This document shows positions 42,501 through 63,800 of a stretch of DNA of 64,000 nt, in pieces. The position numbers and the translations under genes were made by a program. The stretch's first letter is position 1; each line of letters starts with the position of its first letter. This stretch comes from Branchiostoma floridae (Eukaryota > Chordata > Leptocardii > Amphioxiformes > Branchiostomatidae): NCBI RefSeq assembly GCF_000003815.2, contig NC_049980.1, forward strand, positions 11,981,757 to 12,045,756. Reading direction: 5' to 3'. The notes under the pieces were generated by a model. That model was not told where the DNA came from, made no database searches, and saw nothing but the letters and a program-made list of their open reading frames with translations.

Positions 42501-45500
42501 GATACACCTTAAGAGATACCCAATGCTTTCCAACTTTTAGCACATTGAAGCAACTGGGAATTGTATATTGACTAAGGGGTAAGGTACATGTAACAGGGAA
42601 CTTGGGCTTTATAACTTTAAAGTTTTTATCCATCACTGCTATTGAATGACTTTGTCCTCATTTTCAATTGAATATTCATCATCATCATCATCGTCGCAGG
42701 CTACTTGCCCGGACCAGGTCCACTCTCTCCTTCCAGAGCCTGATTACATTTGGTCATGAAGGAAAAGCCATCAACATTCTACAGTTTCTTATGCAGCTCA
42801 TCTTTCACTACAGGTCTACAGCAGATGGGAACTTGCTGTTTGCATAAACTAAAATGTTACATTCATGTTACATTCGTCTAATTTCTGTAGGTTGCAGTTG
42901 TGATGTAGGTGGGGCAGTGACGGACGTGTGTGACAAGGCCACAGGACAGTGCGTGTGCAGGGAGGGGATGGAGGGGCGGCAGTGTGACGTCCCCACCCAG
43001 GGGCAGTATGTACCGGGGCTGTACCAGTACAGGTACGAGGCCGAGGACGCAGACACGCCCCGCGGCATGCCCGTCAGGTTTGGGTATTCTCCAAAGGACT
43101 TCCCAGGATTCAGCTGGAGGGGATATGCAATCATGAATACTGTCCAGGTACGTAAAATCTGTACTTGTATTATAGAAATGTTGAAAAGTTATTATCTGCT
43201 TAATTTTGCTGTCAACATTAACTTGAATTTGGGTCCCTGCATATTGTTTTCAATCAAATCCTTAAAGCATTGTTCAACAGTTATAGTGATCGTTTTTTCT
43301 ATACTTTTGTGTTTTTAGCCAAGGATAATCCTGTCAGTCCTAGTTGACCGCCCTGCGCTGTACCGTGTGGTTCTGTCATACGTCAACCCGGGACAGGAGA
43401 CTGTCATTGGCAACATTCGAGCAAACCCACTGTCTCAGTCAGCTGATGTTGGTAAGAGAGTCATGGGCGTACATGTATTAATTAGAAGATAAAGGCTATG
43501 TTTGTCTAGATTGCAGGCCATAAAAAAAGGCTGCATACATTTTTTTCATACCTTTACAGCTATCATACATTCATTTACTTAATACAAGCACAAGCAAAAT
43601 TTGAAAGAACATTACATGTGCACTTAGGCAATTTCTTTTACTTATTTTTGCTTCCATATCAACAGCTTATTCTTCAATGACTTGCATTTCTTTTATTTTG
43701 TTGGCATTTTTAGTGTCAAGAAGATCTTTGTACAATAAGTGATACAAGAATGTCAAATAAAGTTTAAAGTGTTTTAGATGGGAATATCAACCAAACTCTG
43801 CAACTTCCAATATTGTTTTTGACTGTGTTTTTGATGATTTTTTTTCTGTGTCTTTTTCTCCTCTCCTACTGCAGTTTCCCAGCAGAGCAGTGAGATAGTG
43901 TTCAACCCCACCAGCACCCCGACAACTGTCACTGTGGTGGGGAACAGTTTCATCATGCCCTTTGTGCTCAACCCAGGACAATGGAGCTTCACCATTGAGG
44001 TGTCAAGGGTCCTGTTGGTCAGTATTCTGCTGATATGTTTTGTCCTTTTTTCATTGTCAAGTGTTGTCAAGTTCAACATCGTCAAAAGGAGAGTAATTTG
44101 ATTCAAATACAATTCAATCTCTACAACTAAAAAATGGAGGTTTACTTCAATCTGGACGTTTCGAGTGACATCTATCACTTTTCTTCAGCATCACTAGAAC
44201 ATTGAAAGAGTGATGTCACGCGAAACATCCAGAAGTAAATCTCTGTTTTTATCCAGCTGTAGAGATTGAATTGTATCTGAATATTGTTTACCTGGATTTC
44301 TAACCTTTATGAAAATAAGTGTAACTTTATAACAAAGCAAGTTACATGTTTAGTGAATAGCCCCAACAGGGCTCAATAATAACATTTCCCAATAATTGAT
44401 AGATGTTCTCATCATGCACACATGCATAAGTACAGTCAAACCTGTCTATAGCGGCCACTCAAGGGACTGGTCAAAATTGGCCACTATAGAGAGGTGGCCA
44501 CTATAGAGAATATGCTAATTAATTGACCACAAGCAAAAAGTTACACATGGTTTTAGTACCCACTGATTTATATTCACATAATACAGTACTGTACATGTAC
44601 TGCAATGATTTTTATACTATGTGTATTAAGAAAACAAAAGCTATAAAAAAATTTAAATGTTCTACAGTTGATATTGTTTGAAGAGACCGGTATCGTCATA
44701 TTTCTTTGATCTTTCGTCTTGTATCCTTTGATAGTTCGCCGTCCGTGTTTTCCCGCTCACGTTCACACGTCAGATTCGCCCATTATGCTAATGTGGTACT
44801 CACAAGAAAAGTCTCGTCATTTTAGACTTATCTCTTAATAAATGTAAGAATAAAATGCACCATAGTCTGAAGTTCATATCATTTTGTCTTTGTAACAATT
44901 TGTTTAGAAAGATTTTGTGATGTAAATTAACCTAAGCGATAGTGTATTAGCACGTAACTTTAACACAATTTACCTCCGTAATATTGGTGTCGTCTATATA
45001 TGACCTCGTTTGTCGGCGGGTATGGGTAGCGCCAGTTTACGCAGTTTTGTTTTGAAAATAAATCACAGAGGTTTTAAATCCGGCGTAGCGTGCCGAAACA
45101 TAGACCAGCAGTCCGCGTGGCCGTAATCAGCAGTGTTTTTGTACCTGCGGGACCGGAAATCGTGTGGCCGTGGCCGCGTTGGACAGGTGGCCGCTAAGCC
45201 TATCTCTTAATCATTACGAATCCAAGGGACCGACAAAAAGTGGCCACTATGGGCAGGTGGCCGTTATGCAAAGGTGGCCGCTAATACAGGTTTGACTGTA
45301 CATATTGTGATAACATGAAAGCTCTATCTCACCTGCAGGACTACATGGTGCTGCTGCCTGCAGCCTACTTTGAAGCCCCACTGCTGCAGCTGAAGGTGGA
45401 GGTCCCCTGCAAGTATGAGATTCCAGAGGACCCAAAAGACCAGTAAGTCTCTCCTGGACCATCAGTAGCCCAAGCAGTCCTCAGTTTCTGTAGGGTGATT

Positions 45501-48500
45501 CATACAGTGTTTAATAGTTAACCCTGAACTTAAGCATCATATTAGAATTAAGGGCATGTGTTAATTCTACAATTTTCAGCAGGAAAAATTGCTCAAGTGT
45601 TTGTTGACTTTTACAGTCGAACCTCCAGCCTGTAATGATGATATTGTTTTGTATTGTATACTCAGATTAAAGGACAACTTCAATCTTTCAAGCAACACAC
45701 GCTTCACAACAAATAGCTCTCTGATGGTTTTTCACAATGTACAAAGTTTTGTCAACCGTTTTGTAACTGTCTCCTGTGATCTTAAAATGTAACTTTAAAC
45801 CGTATCCCAAATAATGTATAAGTTTCTGTATTCTAGGTTTTTTATCTTAACTTTTTTAACACTTTGATTAAGTTTCTTAGTTTGTAAGTTACAGTCTCAT
45901 GTATAAATTAGTGATAATTCAGGTGTTGCCTTTGGCACAAAGCCTGCAAATAAAGTTCTGTAACTTTGCTCTATGTGTGTTCCCAGCTGCCTGATGTACA
46001 CCCACCTGCCCCTGGATGACTTCACCACAGTCCAGGCAGAGTCTGGGTTCTTCCGTCCGCAGCAGGGCGATGATGACATGAACAACACCCTGTCTGTCCT
46101 GGGAGACAAGATCGCTACACAGTACATCCAGCCCTCCAAGTTCTACCCACTCATGGCACTGTTGGATCACAATCAGGTCAGGACTGACATAGAAGCCTTG
46201 AATTTTACAAGAATACTATTACAGGGAAACTGCAGACAATCTTCAATGGTCATGTTGTTTTTTTTGTGTGCAGATTTTGCATTGATACAGCAAATATGCA
46301 TTTTCAATTTATTAATTGTACTATCAATGGAAATATTCTAATCGTAAAATAAAAACCTCCTTTCCCTATCAACCAAGAAATCAAGTCTCCACAAAAATAA
46401 ATTCATATACAATATTCTCATGACACCTTCCAGACAGCTTTAACCGTGATAAATGATTGCCTTACAGGTAACTCATTCACCTTGTTACGATTTTGCAGAT
46501 CACCTGCACTAGAAGAGACATACTTAACGTTAATGCAAGAAATGCTAATAAAAACGGTGCTGAAAAGTTTGCAATGTTACCGTTATCACAGTGTGGCCCT
46601 TGTGCTGTAAACATAATTGTTTAATCATTTTAGCCTAGATACAGGCAATAGAACAAAATTTGCCAGATATCAGTCTGTCTGAGCCCTGTGCTTGGATTTC
46701 TTATTCCAAATTGACATTGAACTCATAATGCTGGTATTTCTGCCTCACAGATGGTTCTACTTCTGGAGCTGACTCTGCCCAAGGCTGGCGAGTACGTGTT
46801 TGTGATTGAGTATGCCAACTTTGAGACACGGGCACAGACCCTGCAGATCCGTGTGGACAAGACAGAGGGCAAGAATCAAGGCATCTTCAACATTAACACC
46901 TGCAACTTTAGGTATAGTACACTGTTCCTATCAGAGATGTAGAGTCTAGATGTACACAAGTCACTCAATGTTATCTGTCATTTGTTTTGCACAGGGATAA
47001 TGATACAGTAAGACATTATTACCTCAACAGTCATTTCAGAAGCAGTAGACACTAAACATATCCAGATTTTGGTCTTTATTGCAGTTTCCGCTGCCGTGCA
47101 GTTGGGATTGACGACAATGGGAGAGAGGCACGCTTCAAGGTTACCTCAAAGTCAACCACCATCAGCCTGTCTGGGGATAAGCTCAGAGTTGCCATTGTGA
47201 GTTTTTCAACACTGTATTTTCTTGCATTCATTTTATACTTTGCAACTAATTAACAAAACACATCATTCCTTGATCCTAAGGGTTGTTACAGACTTAGCCC
47301 TTAAGAATTCTTCAATCAGACAGCAAGTATAGTATTGATTCTGTACGTTGCTATTGGCATTCTGAAACATTGTATATGTCGGTCATTGCTGTATATTGTT
47401 CTGCATTTTTAGGACTCACTGACTGCCATTCCTGTTGAGTCATGGGACCCAGACTACATCATTCCCAAACCTCAGTGTGTGGCCAGTTACGGGCCATTCT
47501 CCAATCACAAGTAAGATCAAATGTTATATAAACAACTGTTACTTTTTTTATTGAAAATTTAAAAACATGTTTGCTTATTCAGTATGTGTGATATGACAAT
47601 ATATTGATGAATGATTTTTGTGGTAAAAGAAATTAGGATTTTGGTGTTGTATAATTGTAAAGCTTGTAAAAAGTATTGGAACATAACTACTTGTTGCATA
47701 AGTCTTCTACCATAGGAGAAAAATATTGTCTGATATCCAATCTACATGATTTTGTTCCTTACAAGTTTAATATTATACAGAACTTGCTACATTGGATAAT
47801 GATACTTATTTCCTCCTTTGTTTGTAAGAAAGTGGGTATTTTTCATTGTTTGTCTCTCTCTACCCTCCCCCTTCATCTCCCGATTCCATGCTCTGAGCAG
47901 GAAGAGGGCTGACCCCAGGTAAAACTGAATCAGTACTCCCTCTCACCTTTCACCTCTCACCTTTTCATCGAGCACCACAGATACTTTCTTTCACATCACC
48001 ATTTTTGACACGGCATCAAGCCTTGCAACAATTCCTTCGTAATTTTAATTTCTTGCAAGAAATTTTCTGTTTCTCATGATTTTCACTATTTTTGCATCCG
48101 TTTTTTACTTGGTGCATTTTGTGTATTTTAAGGGGAAATTTAACAGTTGTAGGTAACTTTACTAAACACAAAAACCTCTATAACGGTCCTCTGTCAGGTG
48201 TGTCCAGTCCATGTACACAGAACCAGTCGGAACAGTAAGGATCATGCCGAGTTCTGGGCAGGACTCGATGCGTCGCCAGCCTCTCCTGGTCCTGTCCAAC
48301 TCCAAACTCTTCCTCCTGGACAGGGAACAGGTGAGAGTTGTGTTTCTGATGGGGTCAGGGATGTAGCATTATTTGACATGTAAATTCTCTCAGTAGTTTG
48401 GATAACATAGTGTGTAAAGGTTGGCAAAATGTCTTGAGTCACCTATCTAATGTTTTGGGTTAGTAGGCACACTTGGAGGGATATTTTTGGTCTGAAAAAT

Positions 48501-51500
48501 GTAGAAATAGAACTAGATTATGTATAGAGCTTAGATTACTCTGAAATTAGTCTGAAGTTATTGTAGGCCTGATAGCTGTTGATCCCCAGATAGCAGAGTA
48601 TTCCATTAAAGCAAATATTCTCATTGTGGTCTGGTAATGTTACTATGCAAATTATGAAAATGAAACTGGACAACAATATTAAAGTTAGTGTGAAAGTCAT
48701 TCAGCAGTAGGGACAGGTACTGCAGAAATGTCCAGATTTAGACAGAACTAACCCAGTGTAGATACAATATAGAAAACATCTGATGGACGTACTAAAATTC
48801 ATGAAGTTCTTTTAGTTACACACCCTTGTTATCCTTGTCACTAAACTTCCATTCAAAACTTCACACTGAGTTTAGTCAACACCGCATCTCTCGTTTCAGA
48901 ACCAGCTTGAGTTTAGTGGCCGTCTCCTGTCAGCAGGTAGAATGGTGTTCCTGCTCCACTACTTCCAGCCTGAGAGTACAGGCTACACAGCACAGGTCAA
49001 GGTCACAACACCACTCAGGCAGGAGATTCAAGGTAGGTGCAGCTGTTTTGCGAGTGAATTTCATTTCAGCACCAAGGACAGATACTGTGGAAATTAAGGC
49101 AGAGACTGTCCTGTACATGCCATTCAGCACTAAGAATGGGGATATTATAGTTAGTGTGAAAGTCATTCAGCACCAAGGACAGGCACTGCAGAAATGTCCA
49201 GATTTAGACAGAAATAACCCAGTGTAGATTCCATTCAGCATTGATGACAGGGATGTCATATTAGTGTGAAAGTCATTCAGCACCAAGGGCAGGTAATGTG
49301 GTAATGTCCAGAAGCAGCCCTATCAGCATAGATGCCATTCAGAAAAAATGTAATGTTCAGTGTGAAAGTCATTCAGCACCAAGGGCAGAGACTTTGGTGA
49401 CGTCCAGACCAAAGCAGAAATAGCCCTGTCAGTGTAGATCTGTATTTAGCATGGGAAACAGGGACATAATATTCAGAATGAAAGTCATTCAGCAACATGG
49501 AAAGGTATAATGAATGGCAGTGATGACACTAATGTGATCAGCATTCAGCATATAAATGGAAACTGAACAGAAACGAAATTCAGCACCACGGACAGGGCAT
49601 ATGGTATCTATGTCAATGTATATATTCATAAGTCCCAATGAAAATCTTATTGTGGCAGAACATTTTATGCACTATTTTGCAAGACAACAATATGGTTAAA
49701 CATGAAACCTGTGTATTTTTCAGGAGTTATCCAGGTTGACTACTGTCCCCACAGTGCCGGCTGCCGTGCCATCATGCTGTTCTCAGGTCTGGGACAGGAG
49801 GTGGACATCACCCAGCCTGACATCAGGCTCATGATCACTGTTCCTGCAGACAGAACCATCTGGGTGGTCAGTACACAACTGCTCATCACTCAAAACAGTT
49901 CATGTGGTCAAAATGCATTAGAATGTACTGTTTCTTCTCATAAGAAATTTCACGTAAATGCGGATGTCATTCAATTTCAACACACAACATCATTGAGGAA
50001 GCCACATAAAATCTAAAATACATTAAAGCATTTGATGAAAAAAAAAAACTGTTTCGCTTGTAATTCTATGACCAATGCAGTTTTCTTGTCTGTTGCAGGA
50101 CCATGTTGTGGCTATTCCAGAGTTCAGCTACACCCCCTCCCTTCTCATGGACAGCAGGATTGACAAGTCTGGTGACTTCATCAAGCAGTGTGGCAAATTT
50201 GACTTTAACCTCAAGTAAGTTGCAAAAAACATAAAAGTCACTGTAGCCATAATCCTAAAACAATCCATTCCTAATTTCTTCAATAGAATTTTATCTCTTG
50301 GACCTAAAATGTTGCAACACTATCATTTTTCTCTTAGATGTCACCACTGCAAAGATATGTTATACAAAAAAGCTAACTGTCAAATTTACGACTCCTTCTA
50401 GTGACAGGGACCTGACTCCCTTCTGTCGGAAGTCCATCATGTCACTGTCTGCCCACTACAACGATGGGGCGACCCCCTGCAACTGTAATCCCCGGGGCTC
50501 TTCCAGCCAGACCTGCTCCCCCCTGGGTGGACAGTGTCCTTGTAAGGACAACATCGTGGGGCGCAGCTGTGATGTCTGTGCTACTGGGTACTTTGGCTTC
50601 CCCGACTGCAGAGGTAAGTTTATCTATTAAGATTCACTGAATGAGATCTGAGAGGTGTTGGCAACAGGATTCATACATCCTTTACAAGGCTGACACCTCC
50701 AGCATACAGTTAGTAACAACTAATAACATAAAACATAATGTGGAAGACAGTCTCTCTATGGACTGCAGTATGTCCCATTGTTTCCCTGCTGCCTAACCCC
50801 ATGACCAACACAAATTTGGTGCTGTAGCAGGCTGAAGCTGAATCTATCTTTTAGACCAATCTGTTAGATCTCCAACCGTAGATAGACATGATTCAGATTT
50901 TGTGATTTAGTCACAAATATTTACGTAATACGATGTCTTTTTTCAGCCTGCCCATGTGGAGAGAACCGCTTGTGTGACCCAGTGACGGGAGAGTGCATCT
51001 GTCCCCCACGTTCCCGCCGACCTGAGTGTACCGTCTGTGAGGAGGGGACATACGGGTACCACCCACTGCTTGGATGTGAGGTACACATGTGACCATGTTC
51101 TAAATAATGCATGGCATTGTGTGGACCTGACTACATGCATACCTAAAATGCAATGAGGCCCAGGAAAATTAATGTTGTGTTTCCTGAGAAAAATTACTGA
51201 TGGTAAGAGAGGGATTTTTTTGCAGGGATTCGATTTTAAGTGAAGAAAATCTTACTGCATCCCTTGGCAGCGGTTTGACCAGAAAATGGCTAGGGTTGGC
51301 CTTTTTTTTGGGAGAACAAAGTGATTTCTGCACAAGTTCTATTACAGGGAGAAAGTCTAGACATATAAATTAGAATTATAATGTGCCCTCGTGACCTCAA
51401 CTGAAATGTTGTATGTCCTACAGCCATGTGACTGTGATGCCATGGGGATCCTGGACCTGAACTACCCATCATGCAACAGGAACACAGGGCAGTGCAGGTC

Positions 51501-54500
51501 AGTTACCTGACAGTCAGGTTCAAACTACAGAAACTTGCATACATGCATACAATAAACAGAAAAACAAGTTACTGCTGCCCAGAATGAATGTCACTCAGCA
51601 CCAAGGACAACGGTAATTTATAACAGTATGGGTATTTGTGTCAATATGAGTGTAGATCAGAACCAGTGACAGGGCAAACAGAGCTATTTACAAGCATACA
51701 ATGAACAGAAAAAACAGACAGACAGGGTAACAGTAATGGAATAGTATGTTGCTGCTGCCCAGAATGAATGCATTCAGCACCAGGGACAAGGGTAACTTAT
51801 AGCATCAATTCATGGGTATTTGTGCTGATATGAATGTAAATCAGCACCAGGGACAGGGCCAGCTAAGGTCAGGTTTTCACAGTCTAGATACTGATATATC
51901 ATGTTAACACTCAGTAATGATCCTGATTGATTTTCAGCTGCAAGCCAAATGTAGGAGGCCGACGTTGTGACCGCTGCCTGCCAGGCTACTACAACTTCCC
52001 CTACTGCTCCCCCTGTAGCTGTAGTGCTGATGGGGTTACTGAGGATGTGTGTGACCAGAGAACAGGAAGGTGTCTGTGTAAGGTAAGAAAATCTTGCTTG
52101 TTTGTGCCTTTCATCCGTGTGCCATGTTACAGTAGTAACTTAAAATGAATTTGAAATTCTATCATGTTTGAGCTCATGGAATAATTTGTCCCTAGCTAAT
52201 CAGGACCAAGTTGCATCAATCCTAACCCTAAACCTAAATTATCTAGACCAATGTGGATGGCGTGAGGTGTGACCAGTGTAAGGCCAACACCTACCACCTG
52301 TCAGCCAGGAACCCTGAGGGATGCCACAGCTGCTTCTGCTTCGGTGCCACACCTTACTGTAGGAGCAGTGACTTGCATTACACAGAGGTATAGGACTGAA
52401 ATTTCTTACCTGTACTGTTAAGACAGCAAAACTCATCAAGTTTCAGTCTATACTATGATACCATATTATCATGTAGCGAGTCAGCTTACAGATGTGCTCT
52501 ATGTAGCAGAGACTGTCATTCTTGTATTTAGGACTGTTTACCCATAGCCAATGGTATAGGGCTGATATCAATTAGGATATTACCATGGTCATTAGTGAGC
52601 AAACGGGGCCATATATATATATATCATTTAGTGTCATTTCTTTGCAATGACAGCACACATCAACTTCTAAAAAGCAAAGAAAAAGGATTTTAGATTTGTA
52701 GTAAAAAGCTTTAAAGCAGTGTGAGAGAGTGTTTAAGAATAAGAAAAAAAAGTATAAACTTTTTACGATGCAATATCTTGACATGTACTTTTGTCTATCC
52801 CAGCTTTTGGACATGGAGGACTGGACCGTGTCCAACCAGGTTGGGTCAGAGGTCATGCGGTTTAACGACAAGGTGGAGGTGAAGCTGGGAGAACTGATCC
52901 AACCAGACGAGCCCGTGTACTGGGTGGCACCGGGCATCTACCTCGGCAACTTGGTCAGTACTGTACAGAGTCAAGTTTCCCTTGCAGCTCAGTATGTTAT
53001 TTGTGCATGTGTATACGAGCACAATTCTGCTGTCCTGAAAATCACTTACCATAATGCATTGACATGGACCTCATGCAAGGTAGTACACTTATTCCTCAGT
53101 TTTTATATTCTTATAGGTAACATCATATGGTGGGAGCCTCACCTACACTGTAGAGTACCAGGTGACTAAGACTGCCCTGATGGCCAGGATGCGCCCCACC
53201 AGGCTGCCTGATGTGCTCTTATCTGTGAGTTTGTCTTCTTCTTCCAAAGGATCATAGAATAATTGCAAGTCAAAAGAAACCTAAGATCTGTTAATGTTGA
53301 TAGTTTGCAGAGTGCCATTAACATTGATGCCGGCTTAATGATGATCATACTTTCATCTTGTAGCTGTTAACTATGTTGTAAGTACTCCATTAGTTAGGCA
53401 AAGTTAATAACTTCACAATGAACTATTTGTTCACCAGGGTAATGACATGACCATCATGTACTCCCACCCTGTCATCCCTGAGCCTGATGAGCCCCTCACT
53501 GTTACTGTGGACCTGCTGGAGGTGAGACAACAGGGCACTGGAATGTCTTTTTCTCTCCCTTAGAAGTCTTTTGTGAGATTTTACTTGATTATACAGTATC
53601 ATCCGGTAGTCTCACTTGTGACAGAATTATCTATTTTCATGGTCTCTTCCACAGAAAGTATATCACTAAGTTCATAGCAAACTTGTATGTCTTATCAATG
53701 AAGTTGTGCCAAAGTGATATATGATAAAGCATCATCATATTAAGCTTCTTAGACATAAATCCCATACTTGTAAACCACATGTTCAGGATGTTAACTTATC
53801 ATGGATAACTTTATTTAAGTTACGTTTTTTATTCACTCAATAAAAGATGTTCAATTTGTTTGAGTGTGTTTTGTGGCAAATAATTTAAGATTGATAATCA
53901 TACTGTAACAGCAGCATTTGATTGTATTGAGAGCACATTGTCACATTTTGTAGTAACAAATATTCTTGATTTTGTTCTACCTTGGTACCAGGGTAACTTT
54001 GTTCACAGTAACAGTAAGGGTGCCGTGAGCCGGGAGGACCTGCTGATGGTGCTGGCTGATCTGCAGGCACTGCTCATCAGGGCTTCCTACAGGGAGAAGA
54101 TTCTCAGTGCTACGTACGTAACGTTACTGGTCTCAGAATCATAGCAAGCTAGCTAATGATGAGGATTCAGACCTCTGTATTGGGTCTATATGAATAACTA
54201 TGATCGTGTCGTGATGCACCTGTAAACTAGAATGAAACCATTAAGAGGTTTTACCAATCTTTAAGTGAATGTTGGTTCTTGTCCTTAGTGCTGAAATGCC
54301 CTCAAGACTGGAGGTTTTCTCTTATACTCATATTGGGAGGAAAAACATAACCGTGTGCTTAATTAGGCAACTTTTATAAATCCTTGTGGTACACGTTAAT
54401 ATGCTACTATTCTATTTCAATCATACAATCATGTACATGAAAATATTGACTACCAATAATGTAATTTTTACTTCTTCTTTCTTTCTTCCATCTCTGAACC

Positions 54501-57500
54501 ACTATCTGTCACATCTATCTCTCTGTACAATCTATCTCTTTGTCTAACTCATCTCTCTTGCTGTCTCATTATTTTCTTCCTTCCATTTCACTGCCTGTTC
54601 ACATGAAGCACTTTCAGGTAGCAGGACATTCACCACTTCACCTTCTTCTTTCTTGATAATTTGTAATTAAGTACCAATGACAATTGTCTTTGTATTGTCA
54701 GCTGTGGGTTTATAGTGTTTTCCTATACTTGTGGGGCTTCTTTTGAAAAATAAACATGTAGGTTTACTGGTGTTATTGATAAAACTGAATACATTGTAAT
54801 TACAAGAATTGCATATCAATTTCCAACTTGGTTTTGTCAGCTCATGTCAACAAGGTGTTGTAGGAACTGCAGTTTCTTATACTTCAGATTATTGATATTG
54901 ATTCCTACATATATTTTCTAACCAGTAAGTTAACATCTTGTTACATGTAGCTCCAGGACAAAGTATCATATTTACAAGAAAAGTCATCTTTTATACCTTA
55001 TCATTAACCTTAGAAGAAACCTTATGAGCATATTTTGTAATGGGCTGAGACTTCTTCTTCAATTAATCTTCTGAGGAATGATTAACACTTGCCTTGATTT
55101 CTTCAACATTCTCTTCCAGTATTGAGTCAGTAAAGCTGAGCATCACGACCCAAACCTTCTCCGGCAAACCTGCCCTGGATGTGGAGTATTGTAACTGTCC
55201 ATATGGATACAAGGGGACTTCATGTCAGGTATGCACAGATTATGATTTGAATATCTTCATATCTTCTGGTGATTTCTTATCATTCCTTAGTCTAACTATC
55301 TTTTAAATTTCTTTCCTGTGGTTTGGATGTATTCATACAGATCAATGTTTTGCTTGACTCTATTCTTTTAACAGTATTTGAAATGCAACCTCTGTATGTA
55401 AGAATTTTCGTCATTCTCTGTGGTTTGTATTCTTTTCTGGAGTTTGCTGTCAGATTCCAGGACTCACAAGCATTAGATAATACAGAGGTGACCAAGAAGT
55501 GCATCAGGCTGATCTTGGAGAAGAGGCTGATATTCTTGTGATATCATGTGATACTCTATCTACAAATCAAACAATCATAGACTCTTCTAGAATAGACAAT
55601 TGAATCCATATTTCTCATCCTTACCTTGCTAAAACCACCAGATTTGGACTAAAATGTTGCACTTGTTGTACCCCAGGAGTGTGACGAGGGTTACTACAGG
55701 TCTAAGACTGGTCCGTACCTGGGCCAGTGTGTGAAGTGTGAGTGTTACGGGCACGCCAGCAGCTGTGATGAGAACGGAGCATGCATTGTGAGTACTGGGT
55801 CCTTGTTCAAACTTAAATACTAGCATGTCACTTGAATTTATGGTCAGTGTGAATTCAGCACCAAGGACAAGGTAACAGAATAATTTGTAAGGCTATATAT
55901 ACTAGCAGTATGGATAGTAGTGTTCATAAGAGTGTATTTCAGCACCAAGGACAGGGTAACAATGTAATTTTTAAGGCTATATTCTAGCAGTATGGATTGT
56001 AGTGTTCATGTAAGCGACATCATAATTTGTAAGGCTATATAGCAGTATGGATAGTAGTGTTAATAAGAATGTAATTCAGCACCAAGGACAGGATCAATGC
56101 CACCAGCATCAATACATTATAGAGATTGACTATCTAGCTTATCTTCATTTTAAACATATTTTTTGGACATTGATAAATCAGATATTTATGTTCCATTTTT
56201 TATATAGGACTGTCAGCATCACACTATGGGAGAGAGGTGTGACAAGTGCATGACTGGTTACTATGGTGAGCCCAGGAGGGGCACACCCGACGACTGTCAG
56301 ATCTGTGCCTGCCCCATGGCAACAGAAGACAACAAGTGAGAGACAGCATCTTGTTATCAAAGCCACCATTTTCTTTACACTGAATGTTTTTAGTACTCTG
56401 CCCCACATAAAAATGAAGAAAAAAATGTGACTTATGGTACCTTACTTATGGTACCTTTCAGACAAGAAATAGCTGTCATAAACTTTGACTGAACTGTGTG
56501 TATTACAGTATTGGTTTTTCATTGGCTTTACTACTTGAGAAAATATTCTCACGTTTCTTTTGTGTCCATTTTGACAGCTTTGCCTCAGAGTGTCAGCCAC
56601 TCGCTGGAGGACAGTTCCAGTGCACCTGTCTGCCAGGATATGATGGACCAAACTGTGACAGGTAACGTTATGTACTGCGCATTGATTTTATGTTGGAAAC
56701 TTAAGAAGACCATACAGGATTCTTAGTGCAACGATTGACTGCTTTTTGTTAATTTGTGAAAGGAAAAAAAAACAACTCATCTGTCAAGTACCATAACAGA
56801 GTACTTGTTCGTATTTATCATAAAAAGCAAAAGAGTAGATGATCATAGTAAGATTGCATTATACTTTGAACAAAAGACTCTATGGTGTGCTTGCATATTT
56901 TGTGAATTTCCATCCTCTCAGTACCTCATATGCCCCTTTGACCATCCCCCCACAGATGTGCTACTGGCTTCTACGGGAAGCCCAGTGAGGTTGGCGGGTT
57001 CTGTCAGCGCTGTGACTGCAGTGGGAATGTCCGACTGACCAAGGTGGGGATGAAGAACGTGGAACAGTGTGACGCAGAGACAGGACAGTGTGTGGACTGT
57101 CTGGACAACACCGGGGGCCGCAACTGTCAGAAGTGTGCTGCTGGGTTCTACGGAGATGCCATCAAGACCAGGAGTTGTTCAAGTAAATAAGATCTTTAAT
57201 TAAGAATATTGTTTTCTTTTCAAGTATGACATATGAGACTTGAAGTTTAGCTTGTAAGCTGTTTCATACTATCGTTACTTTGGTACAAATCCTCCACTGA
57301 GATACTGTTTCTTGTCTCCACAGAGTGCAGAAACTGTGATGTTTGCGGCACAGTACCTGATGTGTGCGATGACAAGACGGGCAAGTGTCTGTGTCGGGAC
57401 CATGTGGTAGGGGACAACTGTGATCAGTGTGAGGTGAGGAGTCTGATACTTTTTTTTCATTCACTGTAATTATCCTTTGTCTATATATTTAAAATCTAGA

Positions 57501-58546
57501 GTGCAAGTGATCTTTCAACTTGCCTTTCACTGCAAGAGAAAATTGCCATGAATTACAAAGATTCCTTGTGCAAAATTACTCTTTATGTTAGCATAGCCAT
57601 CACCAGACAAATCCTGAAGCACAAAGCACAGAAACAATAGAGTCCAGTCTAATCAAATTGTTTTTTCATAGCATCATTGACTATAGCATTTCAGACAGAA
57701 AACATGTTTAGTATAGTCCATAAACAATCAGCAAAAAAGCAGATGGCATAGATACAAACAGAAGAGACTGCGATGTAGGTTGAACCTGGAAGCTTACATT
57801 TGTGAGTGCATTTTAGGACCGTTTATAATACATACATTTTTCTTACAGGAGAACCACTATGGGTTTGACTCCTGCCAAGGCTGCCAGGCCTGTGATTGCT
57901 CAGTAGACGGTTCCTTGGCCAAGTCCTGTCACCCCAAGACTGGTCAGTGCACCTGTAAGCCGGGTGTGACCGGCCGGCGCTGTGACCGGTGTGAGGCCAA
58001 ACACTCCAACTTCACCAGTCGTGGATGCAGAGGTAAAAGACTTTTTGGTTCGAATTTTTTTATATATATGATCTTAAAAAGCTCCCTTGCCAAAAAAAGT
58101 CAACAATCTTATATAAGTGTTAACTACGGTGACGCAACTGTTCGTATCCATTTCCAAATTTCCAACATCGTACCATGTTGTACTTGGTAACTGGTAAGCG
58201 GTAAAAAAAAGTTACGATGAATATGATACATGTAGTCAAGAAACAAGAAAAAAGATGACCAGTTGTCACTATAGACATAACTCTTAATGCTTGTGTCAAT
58301 GGGAAAAATATAAGGTACTGCCAAAAACTGTTCATGTTAGCCAGGTTAGTTCTTATGAACTGGTATGACCGAACTTATTTGAAAACTCTAAATCTTGACT
58401 TTCCTTCTCAACAGCTTGCAACTGTCCAAAGGATGGACCATGCGACCCACAGACAGGGGAGTGCAGGTGTCCTGAGGGACTGACAGGGACAGACTGTGAG
58501 AGCTGCAAAAATGAAACCCTCCTGTACACCCCCAGAGGGTGCTGGG
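18589..58546 (+). CDS. LAMA5: Laminin alpha chain (alpha-3/alpha-5 class), 5' 46 exons; 3' end outside window
   Basis: This is the alpha subunit of a laminin heterotrimer, secreted into basement membranes. Its short arm polymerises through the LN domain. I join 46 exons in phase to about 2113 codons. Order: signal peptide ([20 protein letters not shown]), LN, about 10.5 LE (laminin EGF) repeats, the L4b domain found only in alpha-3/5-type chains, LE repeats, L4a, and a final LE block that ends at a phase-1 donor at 58546. The coiled coil and LG domains must follow beyond 64000. This architecture equals vertebrate LAMA5 and the long form of LAMA3, and a single pre-duplication orthologue is expected in an invertebrate deuterostome. 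The symbol therefore denotes the class, not strict one-to-one orthology. The start ATG was chosen for the signal peptide. Intron 1 is about 14 kb. Exon positions are given under the domain entries. Confidence 0.97.
23830..24014 (+). repeat. A-tract preceded by AATAAA (possible retro-insert tail)
   Basis: A T-rich stretch ends in accAATAAAAAAAAAAAAAA-type sequence. It could be the poly(A) tail of a retrotransposed transcript or a LINE 3' end. No coding homology is visible upstream. Confidence 0.35.
28809..28872. repeat. Perfect 32-bp tandem duplication
   Basis: Two adjacent identical 32-bp units, each starting GGCATATACTAGTACGCATC and ending TTTCCGC. Perfect identity points to a recent duplication or an assembly artefact. 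Confidence 0.9.
30960..31210 (+). mobile_element. LINE 3' terminus with conserved-type hairpin
   Basis: The segment ends with a perfect 9-bp stem, ATTAGCTCA-atc-TGAGCTAAT (31164-31184), then gggtatcacaataaacttaataag. A stem-loop close to a short TAATAAAC-like tail is the recognition structure of CR1/L2-type reverse transcriptases. No ORF2 sequence remains. Confidence 0.65.
35508..35551. repeat. 12-bp perfect inverted repeat
   Basis: CAGGAGATCTCA and TGAGATCTCCTG are separated by about 18 bases within laminin intron 4. It is a minor hairpin with no known role. Confidence 0.6.
38067..38175. repeat. Dispersed repeat, family A (copy in laminin intron 8)
   Basis: Shares the ordered blocks ctgaccgtttcca, atatccagttgcttgagtaa and tcacctggatgtataacc with 10516-10635. 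It lies about 95 bp before the alternative exon at 38271. Confidence 0.75.
38271..38440 (+). CDS. Candidate alternative terminal exon of laminin alpha (LaNt-like isoform)
   Basis: A good acceptor (gattttctccag) precedes an exon whose phase (1) accepts the donor of exon 8 at 37839. It encodes a 56-residue tail and a TGA. The tail starts [16 protein letters not shown], has the WW-binding-type motif PPPYSQP, and ends in Gly/Tyr-rich [14 protein letters not shown]. It has no cysteine pattern of an LE repeat and I recognise no family. Joined to exons 1-8 it would make a secreted LN plus three LE protein of about 440 residues. This is the general form of vertebrate LaNt proteins, which are short LAMA3 isoforms, and of netrins. 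An AATAAA lies at 39008-39013, so a 3' UTR of about 570 bases is possible. It could instead be a decayed exon of another gene. Confidence 0.45.
39008..39013 (+). terminator. Possible polyadenylation signal for the short laminin isoform
   Basis: AATAAA about 570 bases after the stop of the candidate terminal exon and 224 bases before exon 9. Placement suits an intronic polyadenylation event; not tested. Confidence 0.3.
44101..44311. mobile_element. Foldback element in laminin intron 19
   Basis: Arms of about 85 bp: attcaaatacaattcaatct at the left, agattgaattgtatctgaat at the right. They flank a short centre and are followed by ttacctggatttctaacc, as in family A repeats. It is probably a family A member with complete inverted arms. 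Confidence 0.8.
44431..45300. mobile_element. Non-autonomous pogo/Tigger-like DNA transposon
   Basis: An 870-bp element with TA-flanked terminal inverted repeats (CAGTCAAACCTG... and ...CAGGTTTGACTG). Subterminal regions carry several gtggccactat / gcaggtggcc repeats. No transposase ORF is present. The CAGT start and TA duplication suggest the pogo/Tigger branch of Tc1/mariner, but without a transposase this is an inference. The right end lies 38 bp before the exon 20 start at 45339. Confidence 0.8.
47901..47918 (+). other. LAMA5: 18-bp laminin micro-exon (exon 25)
   Basis: Between acceptor ctctgagcag and donor gtaaaa, 18 bases encode KRADPR across split codons. It enters and leaves in phase 2, so inclusion or skipping leaves the L4b frame intact. 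The preceding pyrimidine-rich tract (ctctctctaccctcccccttc) is strong, as micro-exons often require. Confidence 0.6.
48700..49599 (+). repeat. RE1-like motif array in laminin introns 26-27
   Basis: Diverged units of roughly 70-110 bp, most with gtgtgaaagtcattcagcac. The core TTCAGCACCAAGGACAG or close variants occurs at 48700, 49065, 49166, 49276, 49372, 49488 and 49579, with weaker copies at 49234 and 49542. The copy at 49579-49599 matches the 21-base vertebrate RE1/NRSE consensus at 19 positions by my alignment. Exon 27 (48900-49032) sits inside the array. Confidence 0.8.
50457..52803 (+). other. LAMA5: Laminin alpha: second LE block (exons 30-34)
   Basis: Exons 50402-50613, 50947-51080, 51424-51497, 51938-52082 and 52247-52387. 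Four full LE repeats (starting [33 protein letters not shown] and [13 protein letters not shown]) are followed by the first half of a split repeat ([10 protein letters not shown]). The LE split by an L4 module is a standard laminin feature. Confidence 0.92.
51594..51860 (+). repeat. RE1-like motif array in laminin intron 32
   Basis: Two imperfect units of about 180 bp share cccagaatgaatg before the core. Cores are at 51594, 51656 (weak), 51773 and 51840. The last reads ATCAGCACCAGGGACAGGGC plus C, differing from the vertebrate consensus at about three positions. Flanks differ from those in introns 26-27. Confidence 0.75.
52804..55185 (+). other. LAMA5: Laminin alpha: L4a domain (exons 35-39)
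   Basis: Exons 52804-52953, 53117-53224, about 53439-53521, 53992-54113 and 55120-55228 (first part). Landmarks: GWTVSN-like [40 protein letters not shown], and the [20 protein letters not shown] segment. The latter is the classic L4 (laminin B) signature. My base count for the 53439 exon gives 83 rather than the 84 needed for the phase; I treat this as a counting error at one boundary. The domain is expected to be stable and globular in the short arm. Confidence 0.93.
55186..58546 (+). other. LAMA5: Laminin alpha: last LE block before the coiled coil (exons 39-46)
   Basis: Exons 55120-55228, 55677-55787, 56208-56335, 56578-56661, 56956-57182, 57324-57433, 57849-58032 and 58415-58546. The second half of the split LE ([14 protein letters not shown]) is followed by about six repeats, starting [19 protein letters not shown] and ending [18 protein letters not shown]. 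The last exon leaves in phase 1. By comparison with LAMA5 the next exon should begin the coiled-coil region. It was not found up to 64000, so intron 46 exceeds 5.4 kb. Confidence 0.93.
55854..56095 (+). repeat. RE1-like motif array in laminin intron 40
   Basis: Tandem units of about 85-135 bp containing taaggctata, tagcagtatggat and agtgtt. Cores TTCAGCACCAAGGACA(G/A) are at 55854, 55938 and 56075. The unit sequence outside the core is unlike that of the other two arrays. Confidence 0.8.
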
Positions 58547-60763
58547 GTGAGTCGGTCCACTTGAATGTGTCAGACTGCAATATGTCCACATACGACTAAT
58601 ATCATGTATGCTTTAAGTTTGCAGCTAAAGTCATGCAGGAAAAAAAGATAATGCCCTAATTTTAAAGGCAGGGTTTGACATACAAAAGCCAGAATGAAGG
58701 CAGAAAGTGACAGTGTAAAATGGTTTGAAGTCCCAGAAAGTCTGTAAAACATGTTCAAGAGGCATAAGCTGTAAGTACTGTTTGTGATTATCTATCCCAT
58801 ATTGGCCAGGACACAGGATGTTGCCCATTAGCTGGTGGCCAGATAATCTTGGTTATTTGTGCTTCTCATTATAGCTAATTGGTCTGTCCCAAAGGGCTCT
58901 CATGATCAACATGACAAGATGCCCCCTAGAAGTGGAATGATAATCCTCAGGAACAGCTTCTGTGTGTAAAGAGTACACAAAGTCCTTCAAGGGTGCATTA
59001 TGAAAAATCCTCACTTGTAACAGTGAACAAGAACAAACAAAATCATCTCAATAATCATAGAAATGAATTAATAAGTACCAGTAATCAGTGTTAACATCCT
59101 TCAACAATCTATATGAAATCTCTTAAGTATCAAGGACAAGTAAATTGGCTTGAACTGGCCTTGAAGGCATGTTCCTGTCAGTGGTTGCCCATCCGTAGGT
59201 GGAGGTTATCTTAACTTGTCTTTACTTGTTAAAGTTGGGCTTTACTTGAGTGACAGCTGAGTCTCAAATCCTTAGCCTGGAGTCCAGCCTAGTTCACTTT
59301 GGTCTGCTCCAAAAGGTTGCAGGTACGGACCATTGGGAGTGGACCAAAGTGAACACAGCAAACAATCTTGCCTTGAAAGTATTGTATGTAATGCCACAGC
59401 AGTCTCCAGATCACATTTGAAAAAGAGTGATCCATTCTTCCTTTCTTTTAGAATTAACTCATTATAGTGATTAACATGCACTTTAAGTTTCACAGCACTC
59501 ACTGACAGTTTGCAGTTGTGAACAGAGAAACTGGATCTCTGTGTACGTATACGTGATCCTGTGGCAATATTTATCTTCATCCAAGTCCTTGCTAGTATCC
59601 TTCATCCTTTGAAAGCCAAACATCATATTTTTCACCTAGACTGAGTATTTAGTAGGATTGTCTTTAGTAAACTTGGAGAGGTTAAGGTTACAGGGAGAGA
59701 GGATTTGTGTACATTTACTATGGCACACTTGTCACAAAAGCAAAGTACTATTCCCAGAAGTTGAAGCGAATTTCAAAGAAGACTTGAGACAGATAATGGT
59801 TTGTCATTATGGATCCAACTGTAAGGTACAAAGGCTTGCCTTTGATCGATTAATTTTAAATACAAGTCTGAGTACAACACACTATAGAGATTAGATGTAG
59901 ACAAGAAAACTACCCGGTTAGCTGTGTAAATCTGTAATTTATAGCTAAGTAAGGGCAGACCATAAACACCTAAGTAACTCTAACCTTACTGCCGCCCAAT
60001 CACTGGCATCATTCCAATAACTGTAACCTACAGCAAATACTGGATCTTTTATCTGTCAAAAGGTCCTTTGGAGTAATTGATAATTCGATTGGCTGCTTGT
60101 TGTTCTTTCAAATCAAGATTCCCTTTTCTCCAAAGAAAAGGCTTCCCTTACAAACAAGAAAATGTGTTCCCAGAAAAGTGCTAATTTTACAGTTGGGTAA
60201 AGCTGTACCCATACCCTTTGTTCTTTTATGATAATCTATTAGTGATTTGTTAAGGGCCACTGGTAGACAGGCCAGACAGAAGGCACAGCTCTCATGTATA
60301 TGTATGGTAGAGATAGCGGAAGAAAAGCACCATTATCTCGCAGCTATTCATGCAGACAAAGGATTCCCTAATTTGCCTTTCTCCCCTGCTTCCCTGAGAT
60401 AGAAAAGTCCAAACTTTTTTTGGGACATCTTAACTTAAGTTCATTCATAGGGGTGTTTAGACTTGGCATGATTTTTCCTATCACCCTTTTTATGCTAAGC
60501 AATTATGGAATAAAGCAAATTGATTAAGACTTTGCAATACTTCACTTTTCGTTTTAGTGACGATGAAAGACAGAGTTTTGTTGTGTGACATTAATGCTAC
60601 GGGGGATCCTCCCCTTTTTTGTACATTGGAATGACCCAGAAAAAGCAGAAATCCTCCATCCAAGCTGAGCTTAGTGGTGCTTAGTCGGGGTTTAAAGCTG
60701 GACTGCAGTAGGGGACGTTTTGTTACTCAGCCAAGAACTTGTGTGGTAATAGTTTCCAGCTTC
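58547..60763. other. Laminin intron 46, left part
   Basis: No LE, coiled-coil or LG coding segment is visible. A foldback of about 19-bp arms lies at 59292-59354 (gttcactttggtctgctcc and its partner). The remainder is unique-looking AT-rich sequence. Confidence 0.5.
59292..59354. repeat. Short foldback
   Basis: gttcactttggtctgctcc pairs with gggagtggaccaaagtgaac around a 26-base loop, with one or two mismatches. Confidence 0.65.
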
Positions 60764-60857
60764 ATGGAGATAGTCCTAAGACTTGGTGCAATGGCCATCA
60801 GGATTTCCCTGTTGTTTGCCATTGTTTTTGTGCCTCTGGATGGGAGTGGAGTACCAG
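60764..60857 (+). CDS. Candidate alternative first exon (signal peptide) for an N-truncated laminin alpha
   Basis: ATG at 60764 encodes MEIVLRLGAMAIRISLLFAI followed by VFVPLDGSGVP and a phase-1 donor (CCAG|gtgagc). This is a typical signal peptide: basic n-region, a hydrophobic core ISLLFAIVFV, then small residues. A second ATG at 60791 (MAIR) would also work. The exit phase equals that of exon 46 at 58546, so it could splice to the same downstream exon beyond the window. A TTTAAAG element lies at 60690-60696, about 70 bp upstream of the ATG. In vertebrate LAMA3, an internal promoter in the equivalent part of the gene makes the short alpha-3A chain. A nested unrelated gene is the main alternative. 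Confidence 0.5.
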
Positions 60858-63800
60858 GTGAGCGTATAAATCTTAAGGCTTTCTCTCAGTTAGCTGCTTG
60901 GGGATAGAGTCAAGCAGAGTAGAGAGACAAGCAACATCATGTCTGTAATCAATTTAGAAACAAAAGGAATGTCAACCTATAACTATCAAGTATAAAAAAT
61001 TATATATTAGTTGAATGACAAAACAACTTTGAAGTAGTTTGCTTATTCCAAAATTTCAGTACTAAAAAAGTCCTAGACATTGTTGCCATTAGATTGAAAT
61101 AGTTCTTTTCTTAACATTCTGCATGAAACATCACTGTCTTATTTGCTTGTAGAAAAGAAAATTATTAGTGCACTTCAATTATTGTCTCGCTATCACTGTA
61201 GACTGCTATCAATTACTTTATACCCAGGATTCTGCAAAGGCCTGTCAGTATATCTAAAAGGATAGACCCTCCTTGGTCTGACCCATTCTGACTTTAAACT
61301 TGAACCCCCATATCTGTGCCATGCTTGATTATTGTTCAGGGCAACATTCAACCTGGTGGCGAGTAATTTGTTCCCTGAGATAATATTCCCTGGGTCCCCA
61401 CCTGTTAGCTGTCCTGTGGAAGTGTCAGAGTTGATCAGGCACTTCTGACTTTGAGAAAAACCTTGTTTTCACTGGGAGGTATTTCTTGTCAAGTGTAATA
61501 ATTTCCCAGAGTACTAGAGTTACATCCCCCATGTCTCTGGCCTTGTTTACCATTCTGAGAGCAATATTTCTCTTCTTCACAGCAGGTACATATTGAACTC
61601 CTTGAGAAAATAAACTTTTTGTAAGACACAGGTTATAGTGAAACACAGATGGCCATATATCTAGCACTGCTTGGAGATCTTAACTGGTTCTCTTGCAGTT
61701 CTTCAAAATGGGTGCAATGATTTCTTAGCAAATCTGTCATAATGGTTAAGTCATTTTCTATTTGAAACTTTGAAACTGTGTTTGGAGCCCTTTAATTATG
61801 AGTATCCCTCAACCATACATTCCAGAGTCTGAGTGTGCATATCTTGATATCTTGAAAAAAAGAAAGAAATTTATGTATGTCAATAAAGTACTTTTTAGAA
61901 TTTATTCCCTTGCTACAAATTGTTTTTCTTTGCTGGGAGGCACATTCAATTCTTAGTGAAGTAGAACAAATTTCCGGCCAGAAGACTGGTCCTCTGAAGA
62001 GGTTCATTTCCTGCAGGTGTTGCTATAGGTTAGGCAATATTTCTTGGTCAAAATATATTAAAGTAGCATACATGTACATGTATGTACATCTTGATTCAAG
62101 CTTTGGGTACTGTTGTCTGGCAGGTATATATATACGTGTGACTAAGTACCATGTAATACCAGACTGCGTGAGAAGGAAGCACACTGTAAAGTAATACACT
62201 GAGGCTAAGCTTAGAAGATAAGCTAGAGAGACAGCTAGAAAGTAACGTGTTATTTACATTTCTGGGATTTGGGTATTGCCTATTGTATGTTTGTCTTAAG
62301 AATCTTCCCTTGCAGAAAAAATAGAAATCTGGTTTAGTTCCTTGAACTTTCCATACTTTGACTCCTGAAATTCAAGTGCACCTGTCTAGAAAGTTCAGAC
62401 TAAAGGAAAAGTCAGTTTTAAGTAAGCCAAGAAAGGCTCCCAAAGGCAGGGATTCTATACCATACTTTGTTATTGTTATGCCCATGGAGGGTGACTCCAA
62501 TATCCAAATATTTTGGATGTTTTAGTGACATATCCATAGCCTAATTTGCATATTTTTTTATTCAAATGTTATCTTTCCTTGTTCAAAATACTCAGAGAGG
62601 TCTTTTGAATGTTACGTTGACAACTTTTTTTCACTTACTGATTTCTAGTCTTCATTTGCTTTTCTTATTCTTCTGGACATGTAAGACTGCTCAGAAGAAT
62701 GTTATGTTGAAAGATTGTGTATTCAAGCAGCTCAAGCATTTTGAGTTCCAGGGACTCATCTTTCCATGCAGAATGCCCAGGAATCCTTGATGGGTTCAGC
62801 AATGCAGACTTGGTTATTCTAGCCCAGCCATGCCTGGCTCATGGCAATTAAGGGTCCCTCTAGTGAACTGTGTGGAATGTAGGTCCCTTCTCATGGAAAT
62901 GTATCTCTATTGTTTCATCTAAGTACCATGTTGCAGTCCCCTGCTTCCCAGGACTTACTGGCTGTCTGCCAGGGAATTTGTCTGTATGCAGAGAAGATTA
63001 CACAGGGGGTCAACAGGTCAAAGATAAGTTTACATGTTGCCATGGCAACTGACACCTGTCCCAGGGTTCAGGGGTTCTAGCACAAATATGTAGATTTGTA
63101 GGTTTGAATTCTGACACTACTCTAACAGCAGACCTTGACCTAAGACCTCAGCAAAGCCCTTAATGTTTGGAATTTTTAACACTTGGGGATGGATGACAAT
63201 GGGTCTTGGGCGCCATTATTTTTTAAGTCATTAGATTTTTTGGCACAATATATAAAGTAGAATATCCTGTCCAATTTTGTGACAGTTTTAAAGATTTTTT
63301 TTATGACACTTTTAAAGATATATAGACGGTTGCAAGAAATTCCATGTGCACTGGTCCATATAATGTTGTTTCTTCACTTTTCAAAGGGACAGAAAGTTTT
63401 GACTAAGAGTTTCCATCAATGTACACTGTAACAGCTGTAGAGATTTCTTTTCAATAATTATTGATAATCTCAGTCCATCTACATGTAAGGTTATGCGAAA
63501 GCTCAGTGACACATGACTGCTGATACAGTGTTGTTTTTTTGTTCTTTGACTGTACACCCTTGAAATGCCTGCATGACCCCCTATCCCTACTAAATCTGAC
63601 ATAATTCCACACTGAGGAAATGAAAGTAGTAACAAACCAAGCATGTGTGATGACTTCCTGTGGATCTACTGTCTCCTATTCAATACATTAAATGCTGTGT
63701 TAACCTCTGTCTGACCTCCCTTTCCAGGTGAATGGATAGAAAGTGTTAGGTATAAAGGGATGGATCAGTTGATTATCTGAAGAGTGGCATTGGTGTATCA

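What the first reader, a model, noticed from the sequence alone, without database searches (positions are those of the whole stretch)
48700..56095. Arrays of RE1/NRSE-like sites in four introns of a laminin alpha gene
At least ten copies of a core close to TTCAGCACCAAGGACAG lie in laminin introns 26, 27, 32 and 40, all on the sense strand. Seen directly: the core is shared, while the flanking unit differs from intron to intron (gtgtgaaagtca, cccagaatgaatg or taaggctata blocks). Established knowledge: TTCAGCACC-x-GGACAG followed by CGCC is the vertebrate RE1 element bound by REST. The copy at 49579 agrees at 19 of 21 positions and that at 51840 at 18 of 21. Inference: either a minisatellite seed happened to contain this motif, or the cores are held by selection as binding sites. 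Core conservation amid diverged flanks favours the second.
Basis: partly seen in the sequence, partly recalled or inferred. Interest (0 to 1): 0.78.

Follow-up and report, generated by a model that had tools for sequence, protein, structure and literature searches.

The report
Vertebrate-type REST sites across lancelet-like genome
The short repeats in this laminin gene carry the same DNA word that vertebrates use to bind the silencer REST; the word occurs more than 7,000 times in this animal's genome, in the sample examined mostly alone with unrelated surroundings, and the genome also holds a gene that looks like REST itself.

Summary
In detail: 13 sense copies (<=2 mismatches) of TTCAGCACC-NN-GGACAG in four laminin introns, plus two antisense copies in the same gene. 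The genome decides. The motif occurs 7,427 times exactly in 513 Mb (reversed control 1), 4,344 with spacer AA. It is more than a repeat unit: of 59 sampled loci, 43 hold a core with no second core within 140 bp and flanks alike at 26% (chance 25.5%); 16 are clustered, some as 43-bp tandem arrays. Spacing is fixed at 2 bp, the spacer varies, orientation to genes is 7:7 in 14 scorable loci, and only 9 sites have the vertebrate CGCC tail. A REST-like gene lies on C4 (L082): 54% identity to recalled human REST fingers 3-6, and 10 of 12 base-contact residues of fingers 4-6 identical, against at most 5 of 12 in 13 other zinc-finger loci. Finger 3, which should read the missing tail, has changed. Best reading: a pre-vertebrate REST/RE1 system, the laminin arrays being local duplications of RE1 sites. 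Binding and any effect on laminin are untested.

The parts
48700..48716 (+).
   Evidence: intron GT/AG 48331-48899
49065..49595 (+). intron array with six cores at <=2 mismatches (49065, 49166, 49276, 49372, 49488, 49579) alternating with five decayed cores (49123, 49234, 49338, 49445, 49544)
   Evidence: intron 49033-49723
49579..49599 (+). one of the two best full-length RE1 matches, TTCAGCACCACGGACAGGGCA (17 of 19 fixed bases; 19 of 21 against the consensus with spacer AC)
51594..51856 (+). intron array with cores at 51594, 51773, 51840 (the last also 17 of 19 fixed bases over 21 bp) and a weaker one at 51656 (3 mismatches)
   Evidence: intron 51498-51937
55854..56091 (+). intron array with cores at 55854, 55938, 56075; tandem unit 84 bp for the first two copies
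   Evidence: intron 55788-56207
54279..54295 (-). isolated antisense core, 2 mismatches, in another intron of the same gene
   Evidence: no unit-like flank visible
36810..36826 (-). isolated antisense core, 1 mismatch, about 25 bp before an intron acceptor (36840-36850) of the same gene
18610..63000 (+). approximate span of the laminin gene within the window (Laminin_N exon 18610-18939, EGF_laminin exon 50403-50606); limits not mapped

Best explanation
The core is an RE1-type site of two half-sites, TTCAGCACC and GGACAG, two bases apart, read by this animal's REST orthologue on C4. In the readable exons, fingers 4 to 6 and the start of 7 keep most vertebrate base contacts, so the protein should bind the 17-bp core. 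Finger 3 has changed, so the vertebrate CGCC tail is not required. Most sampled sites stand alone. Some have been locally duplicated into minisatellites, several with a 43-bp period, and the laminin arrays are such local duplications. Shown: motif counts, isolation of cores in a sample, fixed spacing, presence and contact residues of the REST-like gene. Inferred: binding, repression through co-repressors, and selection as the reason cores stay intact. Any effect on laminin is unknown.
For: 7,427 exact TTCAGCACCNNGGACAG in 513 Mb against about 0.5 expected from base composition and 1 for the reversed pattern. In 43 of 59 loci no second core lies within 140 bp, and flank identity is 0.263 and 0.261 against 0.255 expected. 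The spacer varies (33 single-site C1 loci: AA 16, AG 5, AC 4, TT 2, six others once each), while other spacer lengths give 0 to 5 clean cases each. 7 sense to 7 antisense in 14 scorable loci of 20. REST-like gene L082: 54% identity over 125 aa; contacts RVNA/QTHR/NHER against human RNNQ/QTHR/NHER; ZF2 RDHC against RDHA; ZF7 begins ATADRS as human TADRS. CGCC tail in only 9 sites, and ZF3 contacts changed from SYHK to KFLK. A 2-bp gap between half-sites is the canonical vertebrate arrangement (PMC9903721, passages read).
Against: The 8-9 bp spacing that vertebrate REST also uses is at most weakly present: 4 clean cases at 8 bp and 0 at 9 in the complete list (third spacer base not G), plus 2 at 8 and 1 at 9 seen by eye in the first 100 of 500 places. 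Finger 8, expected to read the 5' CAG, was not seen; a 100-N run follows the start of finger 7. The REST-like exon was not a top hit by score: 46.5 bits against 53.7 for the best; I picked it for its short open frame and full alignment. PF24540 is not REST-specific: it passes its cut-off at 21 places, while the recalled human fragment itself scores 17.7, under the cut-off of 27. Human REST was typed from recall. No binding, chromatin or expression data. Five of 11 units in one laminin intron have decayed cores. Some of the 43 loci keep traces of the 43-bp unit (L012, L017) or have another exact core further off (L011, L018, L048). Host genes looked at are not visibly neuronal.
Confidence: 0.78

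Rival explanations
1. The core is just part of a dispersed minisatellite (a 43-bp family) that spread through the genome; resemblance to RE1 is a coincidence of the seed.
For: Arrays L010, L020 and L036 share a 43-bp period (L010 also 45) and the end GAT(A/G)GTG; L029 shares them in part. Amphioxus genes are known for minisatellites at exon-intron boundaries ('mirages', PMC3087553, passages read). 16 of 59 loci are clustered, and at least two of the other 43 keep traces of the unit.
Against: Most of the 43 loci have exact cores with flanks at chance identity; neutral decay cannot erase flanks and leave 17 bases intact. The 2-bp spacer varies while both half-sites do not. Matching 15 fixed bases of RE1 by accident is very unlikely.
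Confidence: 0.08
2. The sites were spread by an old transposable element; only the RE1 part survives because REST binds it (as RE1s have been spread by repeats in mammals, recalled).
For: Thousands of near-identical sites are hard to explain by point mutation alone; spacer AA makes up 4,344 of 7,427 (arrays included).
Against: No shared flank beyond weak preferences at one or two bases (G at position 18) in isolated loci. This is a variant of the best explanation, not its opposite.
Confidence: 0.35
3. A different protein of the large expanded zinc-finger family binds the motif, not the REST orthologue.
For: Hundreds of REST-like finger matches exist (492, 21 for PF24540, both lower bounds); fingers 7-8 of the C4 gene could not be read in full.
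Against: Best match to human ZF4-6 contacts in 13 other fetched loci is 5 of 12, against 10 of 12 in L082. Only these 13 were compared.
Confidence: 0.1
4. The motif acts as RNA: it makes or is targeted by the annotated miRNA bbe-miR-2060c-3p, whose reported sequence contains the whole 17-mer.
For: PMC5650284 (passage read) lists gttcagcaccaaggacaggc. An inverted pair of cores (L050/L051) lies 1.7 kb apart on C1. One weak inverted pair (49088-49112 / 49176-49200, 76%) touches a window core.
Against: No orientation bias relative to genes (7:7); no inverted arms at the two antisense window sites; no Rfam match overlapping a core. The miRNA may itself be a read from an RE1-bearing inverted repeat.
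Confidence: 0.05

Closest known systems
Vertebrate RE1/NRSE bound by REST/NRSF
   Same: Same two half-sites TTCAGCACC and GGACAG, same 2-bp variable spacer, thousands of genomic sites, a REST-like gene with 10 of 12 contact residues of fingers 4-6.
   Different: CGCC tail in only 9 sites (7,427 sites in all), finger 3 contacts changed, no clear 8-9 bp spaced class, very many exact sites, some in 43-bp tandem arrays. The animal is taken to be a lancelet; no tool names it.
Amphioxus 'mirage' minisatellites (PMC3087553, passages read)
   Same: Tandem repeats in amphioxus genes; reported units run from 10 to 160 bp.
   Different: Mirages duplicate exon-intron boundaries; these arrays lie inside introns and are built on an RE1 core, and most sampled copies of the core are not in arrays.
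bbe-miR-2060c-3p (PMC5650284, passage read)
   Same: Reported mature sequence contains the complete 17-mer.
   Different: No hairpin found at the two isolated window cores; no strand bias against genes.

Membership tests
RE1/NRSE element | left half-site TTCAGCACC, 2-bp spacer, right half-site GGACAG | tested here: met
   5 exact copies in the window, 7,427 in the genome
RE1/NRSE element | variable spacer with fixed length of 2 bp | tested here: met
RE1/NRSE element | 3' tail CGCC | tested here: not met
   9 sites with the tail genome-wide, control 0; none of the window cores has it; positions 18-21 near background except G at 18 in 21 of 43
RE1/NRSE element | additional non-canonical class with 8-9 bp spacing | tested here: inconclusive
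   complete list with third spacer base not G: 4 clean at 8 bp, 0 at 9, about 0.4 expected per length; partial list (100 of 500 places) adds 2 at 8 and 1 at 9 by eye
RE1/NRSE element | bound by REST in cells | not testable with these tools
   no ChIP or binding data
REST/NRSF protein (L082) | contact residues of fingers 4-6 | tested here: met
   10 of 12 identical to recalled human REST; at most 5 of 12 in 13 other loci
REST/NRSF protein (L082) | eight clustered fingers | tested here: inconclusive
   fingers like 2-6 and the start of 7 seen, four further C2H2 patterns upstream; 100 N after the start of finger 7, finger 8 not seen
REST/NRSF protein (L082) | lone C-terminal finger | tested here: met
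   GHSCDFCGRFFTDRDIWEQHVQRHLQAS just before the stop; likeness to the human finger judged by eye, Pfam match below cut-off
REST/NRSF protein (L082) | N-terminal SIN3-binding region and co-repressor recruitment | not tested
   N-terminal exons not fetched
Amphioxus 'mirage' minisatellite | tandem duplication spanning an exon-intron boundary | tested here: not met
   the four window arrays lie inside introns

The most novel reading that the evidence does not exclude
A complete REST/RE1 silencing system existed before vertebrates and survives here in a distinct form: a REST orthologue whose third finger and target tail have changed together, thousands of unusually exact 17-bp sites, and RE1 arrays with a shared 43-bp period (about four helical turns) that could act as multi-site silencers or as sinks that titrate REST.
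Probability: 0.4. Interest if true: 0.86.

Novelty: new variant of a known kind. Interest (0 to 1): 0.72.

Why it matters
REST/RE1 is usually described as a vertebrate device for keeping neuronal genes off (recalled). A pre-vertebrate version with its own gene and thousands of sites would date the system, open the question of what it regulated before the vertebrate brain, and give a clean case of a zinc finger and its target triplet changing together. It also warns that arrays inside a gene need not be about that gene. I saw no paper on RE1 sites or REST in amphioxus in the listings (5 listed; 20 of 189; 15 of 2,255; 25 of 71); most subscription papers are not in that library and longer lists were cut.

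Tried and rejected
Rfam scan of the window: nine matches, all below their families' gathering scores and none over a core. Inverted repeats at the antisense cores: none. PF24540 alone: 21 matches, not decisive. Human REST fingers 2-8 as one query: the three best places fetched are generic finger genes with other contacts. Fingers 7-8 as query: no outlier, best listed identity 49%. Fingers 3-4 led to L082; two other short-frame hits (L083, L084) were generic. Orientation bias relative to genes, considered because the laminin array copies are sense: rejected, 7:7 (rule applied by eye to its output: one strand with at least 50 coding bits and twice the other; L015, L016, L019, L024, L026, L028 dropped; L010/L011 and L012/L013 may be the same or duplicated genes, so not all independent). 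Splice-signal reading (TTCAG and CAG|GT in the unit): considered, not favoured given no strand bias. Count with one mismatch: not completed. JASPAR matrix not available; consensus scoring used. The 17-mer in viral contigs: 3 contigs, taken as a rough control. Other lancelet species could not be compared.
Full report
What is in the window. The motif TTCAGCACCNNGGACAG, up to 3 mismatches, has 20 matches in 64 kb against a mean of 1.41 in 100 shuffles, none of which reached 20. Thirteen sense copies with at most 2 mismatches lie in four introns of a + strand gene between 48700 and 56091; five match all 15 fixed bases. The gene is a laminin: a Laminin_N exon at 18610-18939 and an EGF_laminin exon at 50403-50606. 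The four introns have GT/AG ends. Two further copies, 36810-36826 and 54279-54295, are antisense in the same gene and show no array flank. Three other matches outside the arrays, with 3 mismatches each, are at the level of chance.

Array anatomy. Intron 26/27 units share 93% over 88 bp, and intron 32/40 units share 82% over 46 bp, so the flanks are not fully independent. Between introns the 15 fixed bases average 0.89 identity, against 0.48 for the 13 bases to the left, 0.31 for the 13 to the right and 0.27-0.35 further out; within introns the core is 0.92. These 13 units were chosen by their core, so the comparison favours the core. The intron 27 array also contains five units, of 11 counted, whose core has decayed to 3-8 mismatches.

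The genome. The window is G000:C2:11981757-12045756 of a 513-Mb assembly of 431 contigs. I take that as likely: assembly size fits Branchiostoma floridae (recalled), and the 17-mer is contained in bbe-miR-2060c-3p of B. belcheri (PMC5650284, passage read). The exact 17-mer with spacer AA occurs 1970 + 2374 = 4,344 times, reversed control 0. With any spacer it occurs 3462 + 3965 = 7,427 times, reversed control 1, against about 0.5 from base composition. With CGCC added: 9, control 0; composition alone would give about 16 of 7,427 (my arithmetic), so the tail is not favoured.

Isolated sites. The 100 places listed, all on C1 (of 4,344), fall into 59 loci, all fetched. In 43 of 59 there is no second core (<=3 mismatches, same strand) within 140 bp. 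Mean pairwise flank identity over 50 bp is 0.263 left and 0.261 right, against 0.255 expected. One pair (L050/L051) is a local inverted duplication with 0.92 on the left; L012 and L017 still resemble the 43-bp unit on one side; L011, L018 and L048 have further exact cores farther away. Beyond the queried 17 bases only position 18 (G in 21 of 43) shows a clear preference. The core was queried, so its identity is by construction; the informative facts are the count and the random flanks. The other 16 loci are clustered. L010 (43 and 45 bp), L020 and L036 are tandem arrays and L029 partly so; in these four, core conservation is 0.95-0.96 and spacer conservation 0.70-0.89, with units chosen by core. 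BLAST of the four laminin arrays against the other loci (first 60 rows seen, intron 27 and part of intron 40) gives mostly 20-30 bp around the core; the longest are 57-74 bp at 74-80%.

Architecture. Among 43 independent C1 loci from the first 100 places, 33 hold one exact site, with spacers AA 16, AG 5, AC 4, TT 2 and one each of GC, CA, GA, AT, GT, TG. Other spacer lengths are rare. For spacers of 4 to 29 with a third base other than G there are 66 places (control 14); 31 contain a canonical or near-canonical site, and 35 are clean, at most 5 per length, against about 0.4 expected per length. At 8 and 9 bp, the class described for vertebrate REST (PMC9903721, passages read), there are 4 and 0. 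The looser search (500 places, control 15, first 100 listed) adds by eye 2 at 8 bp and 1 at 9 bp with third base G. I call this inconclusive. Relative to the coding strand of neighbouring predicted exons, 14 of 20 loci could be scored: 7 sense, 7 antisense. This points to DNA, not RNA.

The binder. The genome has a very large family of REST-like fingers (21 PF24540 matches; 492 matches to recalled human fingers 2-8; both lower bounds), and the three best places fetched do not share REST contacts. A query of fingers 3-4 gave, well down the list at 46.5 bits, a hit in a short open frame, C4:20317760-20317924. Fetched as L082, it shows a split gene: an exon with ZF3-6 (54% identity over 125 aa) ending RHVRQ before a GTAAGA donor, then an exon that begins VHLKIKPFQCPYCAYATADRS after CAG, then 100 N. 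A ZF2-like exon and four more C2H2 patterns lie upstream, and a lone finger lies just before the stop. Contacts (-1,2,3,6), this genome against human: ZF2 RDHC/RDHA, ZF3 KFLK/SYHK, ZF4 RVNA/RNNQ, ZF5 QTHR/QTHR, ZF6 NHER/NHER. Ten of 12 match in ZF4-6, against at most 5 of 12 in 13 other fetched loci. The exon just passes the zf-C2H2_REST cut-off, 27.8 against 27, but that model is weak evidence: the recalled human fragment itself scores 17.7.

How it fits. With the recalled finger code, each finger reads three bases: ZF8 CAG, ZF7 CAC, ZF6 CNN, ZF5 GGA, ZF4 CAG, ZF3 CGC. This divides TT-CAG-CAC-CNN-GGA-CAG-CGC-C exactly. The contacts kept in this animal belong to the part of the motif that is kept, and the finger that changed (ZF3) is the one for the tail that is missing. 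This is inference, but it makes a testable prediction.

Function of the laminin arrays. I see no evidence that they are about laminin. The same core occurs thousands of times. By Pfam, neighbours in the C1 sample include oxoprolinase, P450 and CD39-type genes; one looks by eye like a Vsx-type homeobox, but Pfam did not report it from the piece sent. The most likely account is that RE1 sites landed or arose in laminin introns and were duplicated locally, some units keeping the core and some losing it.

Literature. Listings for amphioxus with REST/RE1/NRSF terms (lists cut as given under Why it matters) showed no paper on RE1 sites or REST in amphioxus. A string search for the core found 16 papers, RE1 papers and the miRNA table among them. 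Human RE1 counts for scale: 1,892 in an early scan (PMC1794552, passages read) and 8,436 sites with a canonical motif and a ChIP peak (PMC9903721).

Noticed in passing
PMC5650284 table; L050/L051 on C1: The B. belcheri miRNA bbe-miR-2060c-3p (gttcagcaccaaggacaggc) contains the whole RE1-like 17-mer; it may be a product of inverted RE1-bearing copies such as L050/L051 rather than a conventional miRNA.
   Followed up: partly
L010, L020, L036, L029 (C1): Separate arrays share a 43-bp period and GAT(A/G)GTG before the core although the rest of the spacer has diverged; 43 bp is about four turns of the helix.
   Followed up: partly
contigs C158, C200, C323, C10, C16 of G000: Large clusters of long-open-frame C2H2 genes of one style (CDQCDYSAAQKS...), hundreds of matches to REST fingers.
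   Followed up: no
window 447-624: Sub-threshold Rfam matches on both strands (MIR4208, 59 bits, gathering score 140) suggest a long palindrome, perhaps a MITE-like element.
   Followed up: no
L063 (C1:15198050-15198350): Two RE1-like cores directly abut each other (TTCAGCACCATGGACA then TTCAGCACCAAGGACAG).
   Followed up: no
window 28808-28872: Perfect 32-bp tandem duplication (two copies, 100%).
   Followed up: no
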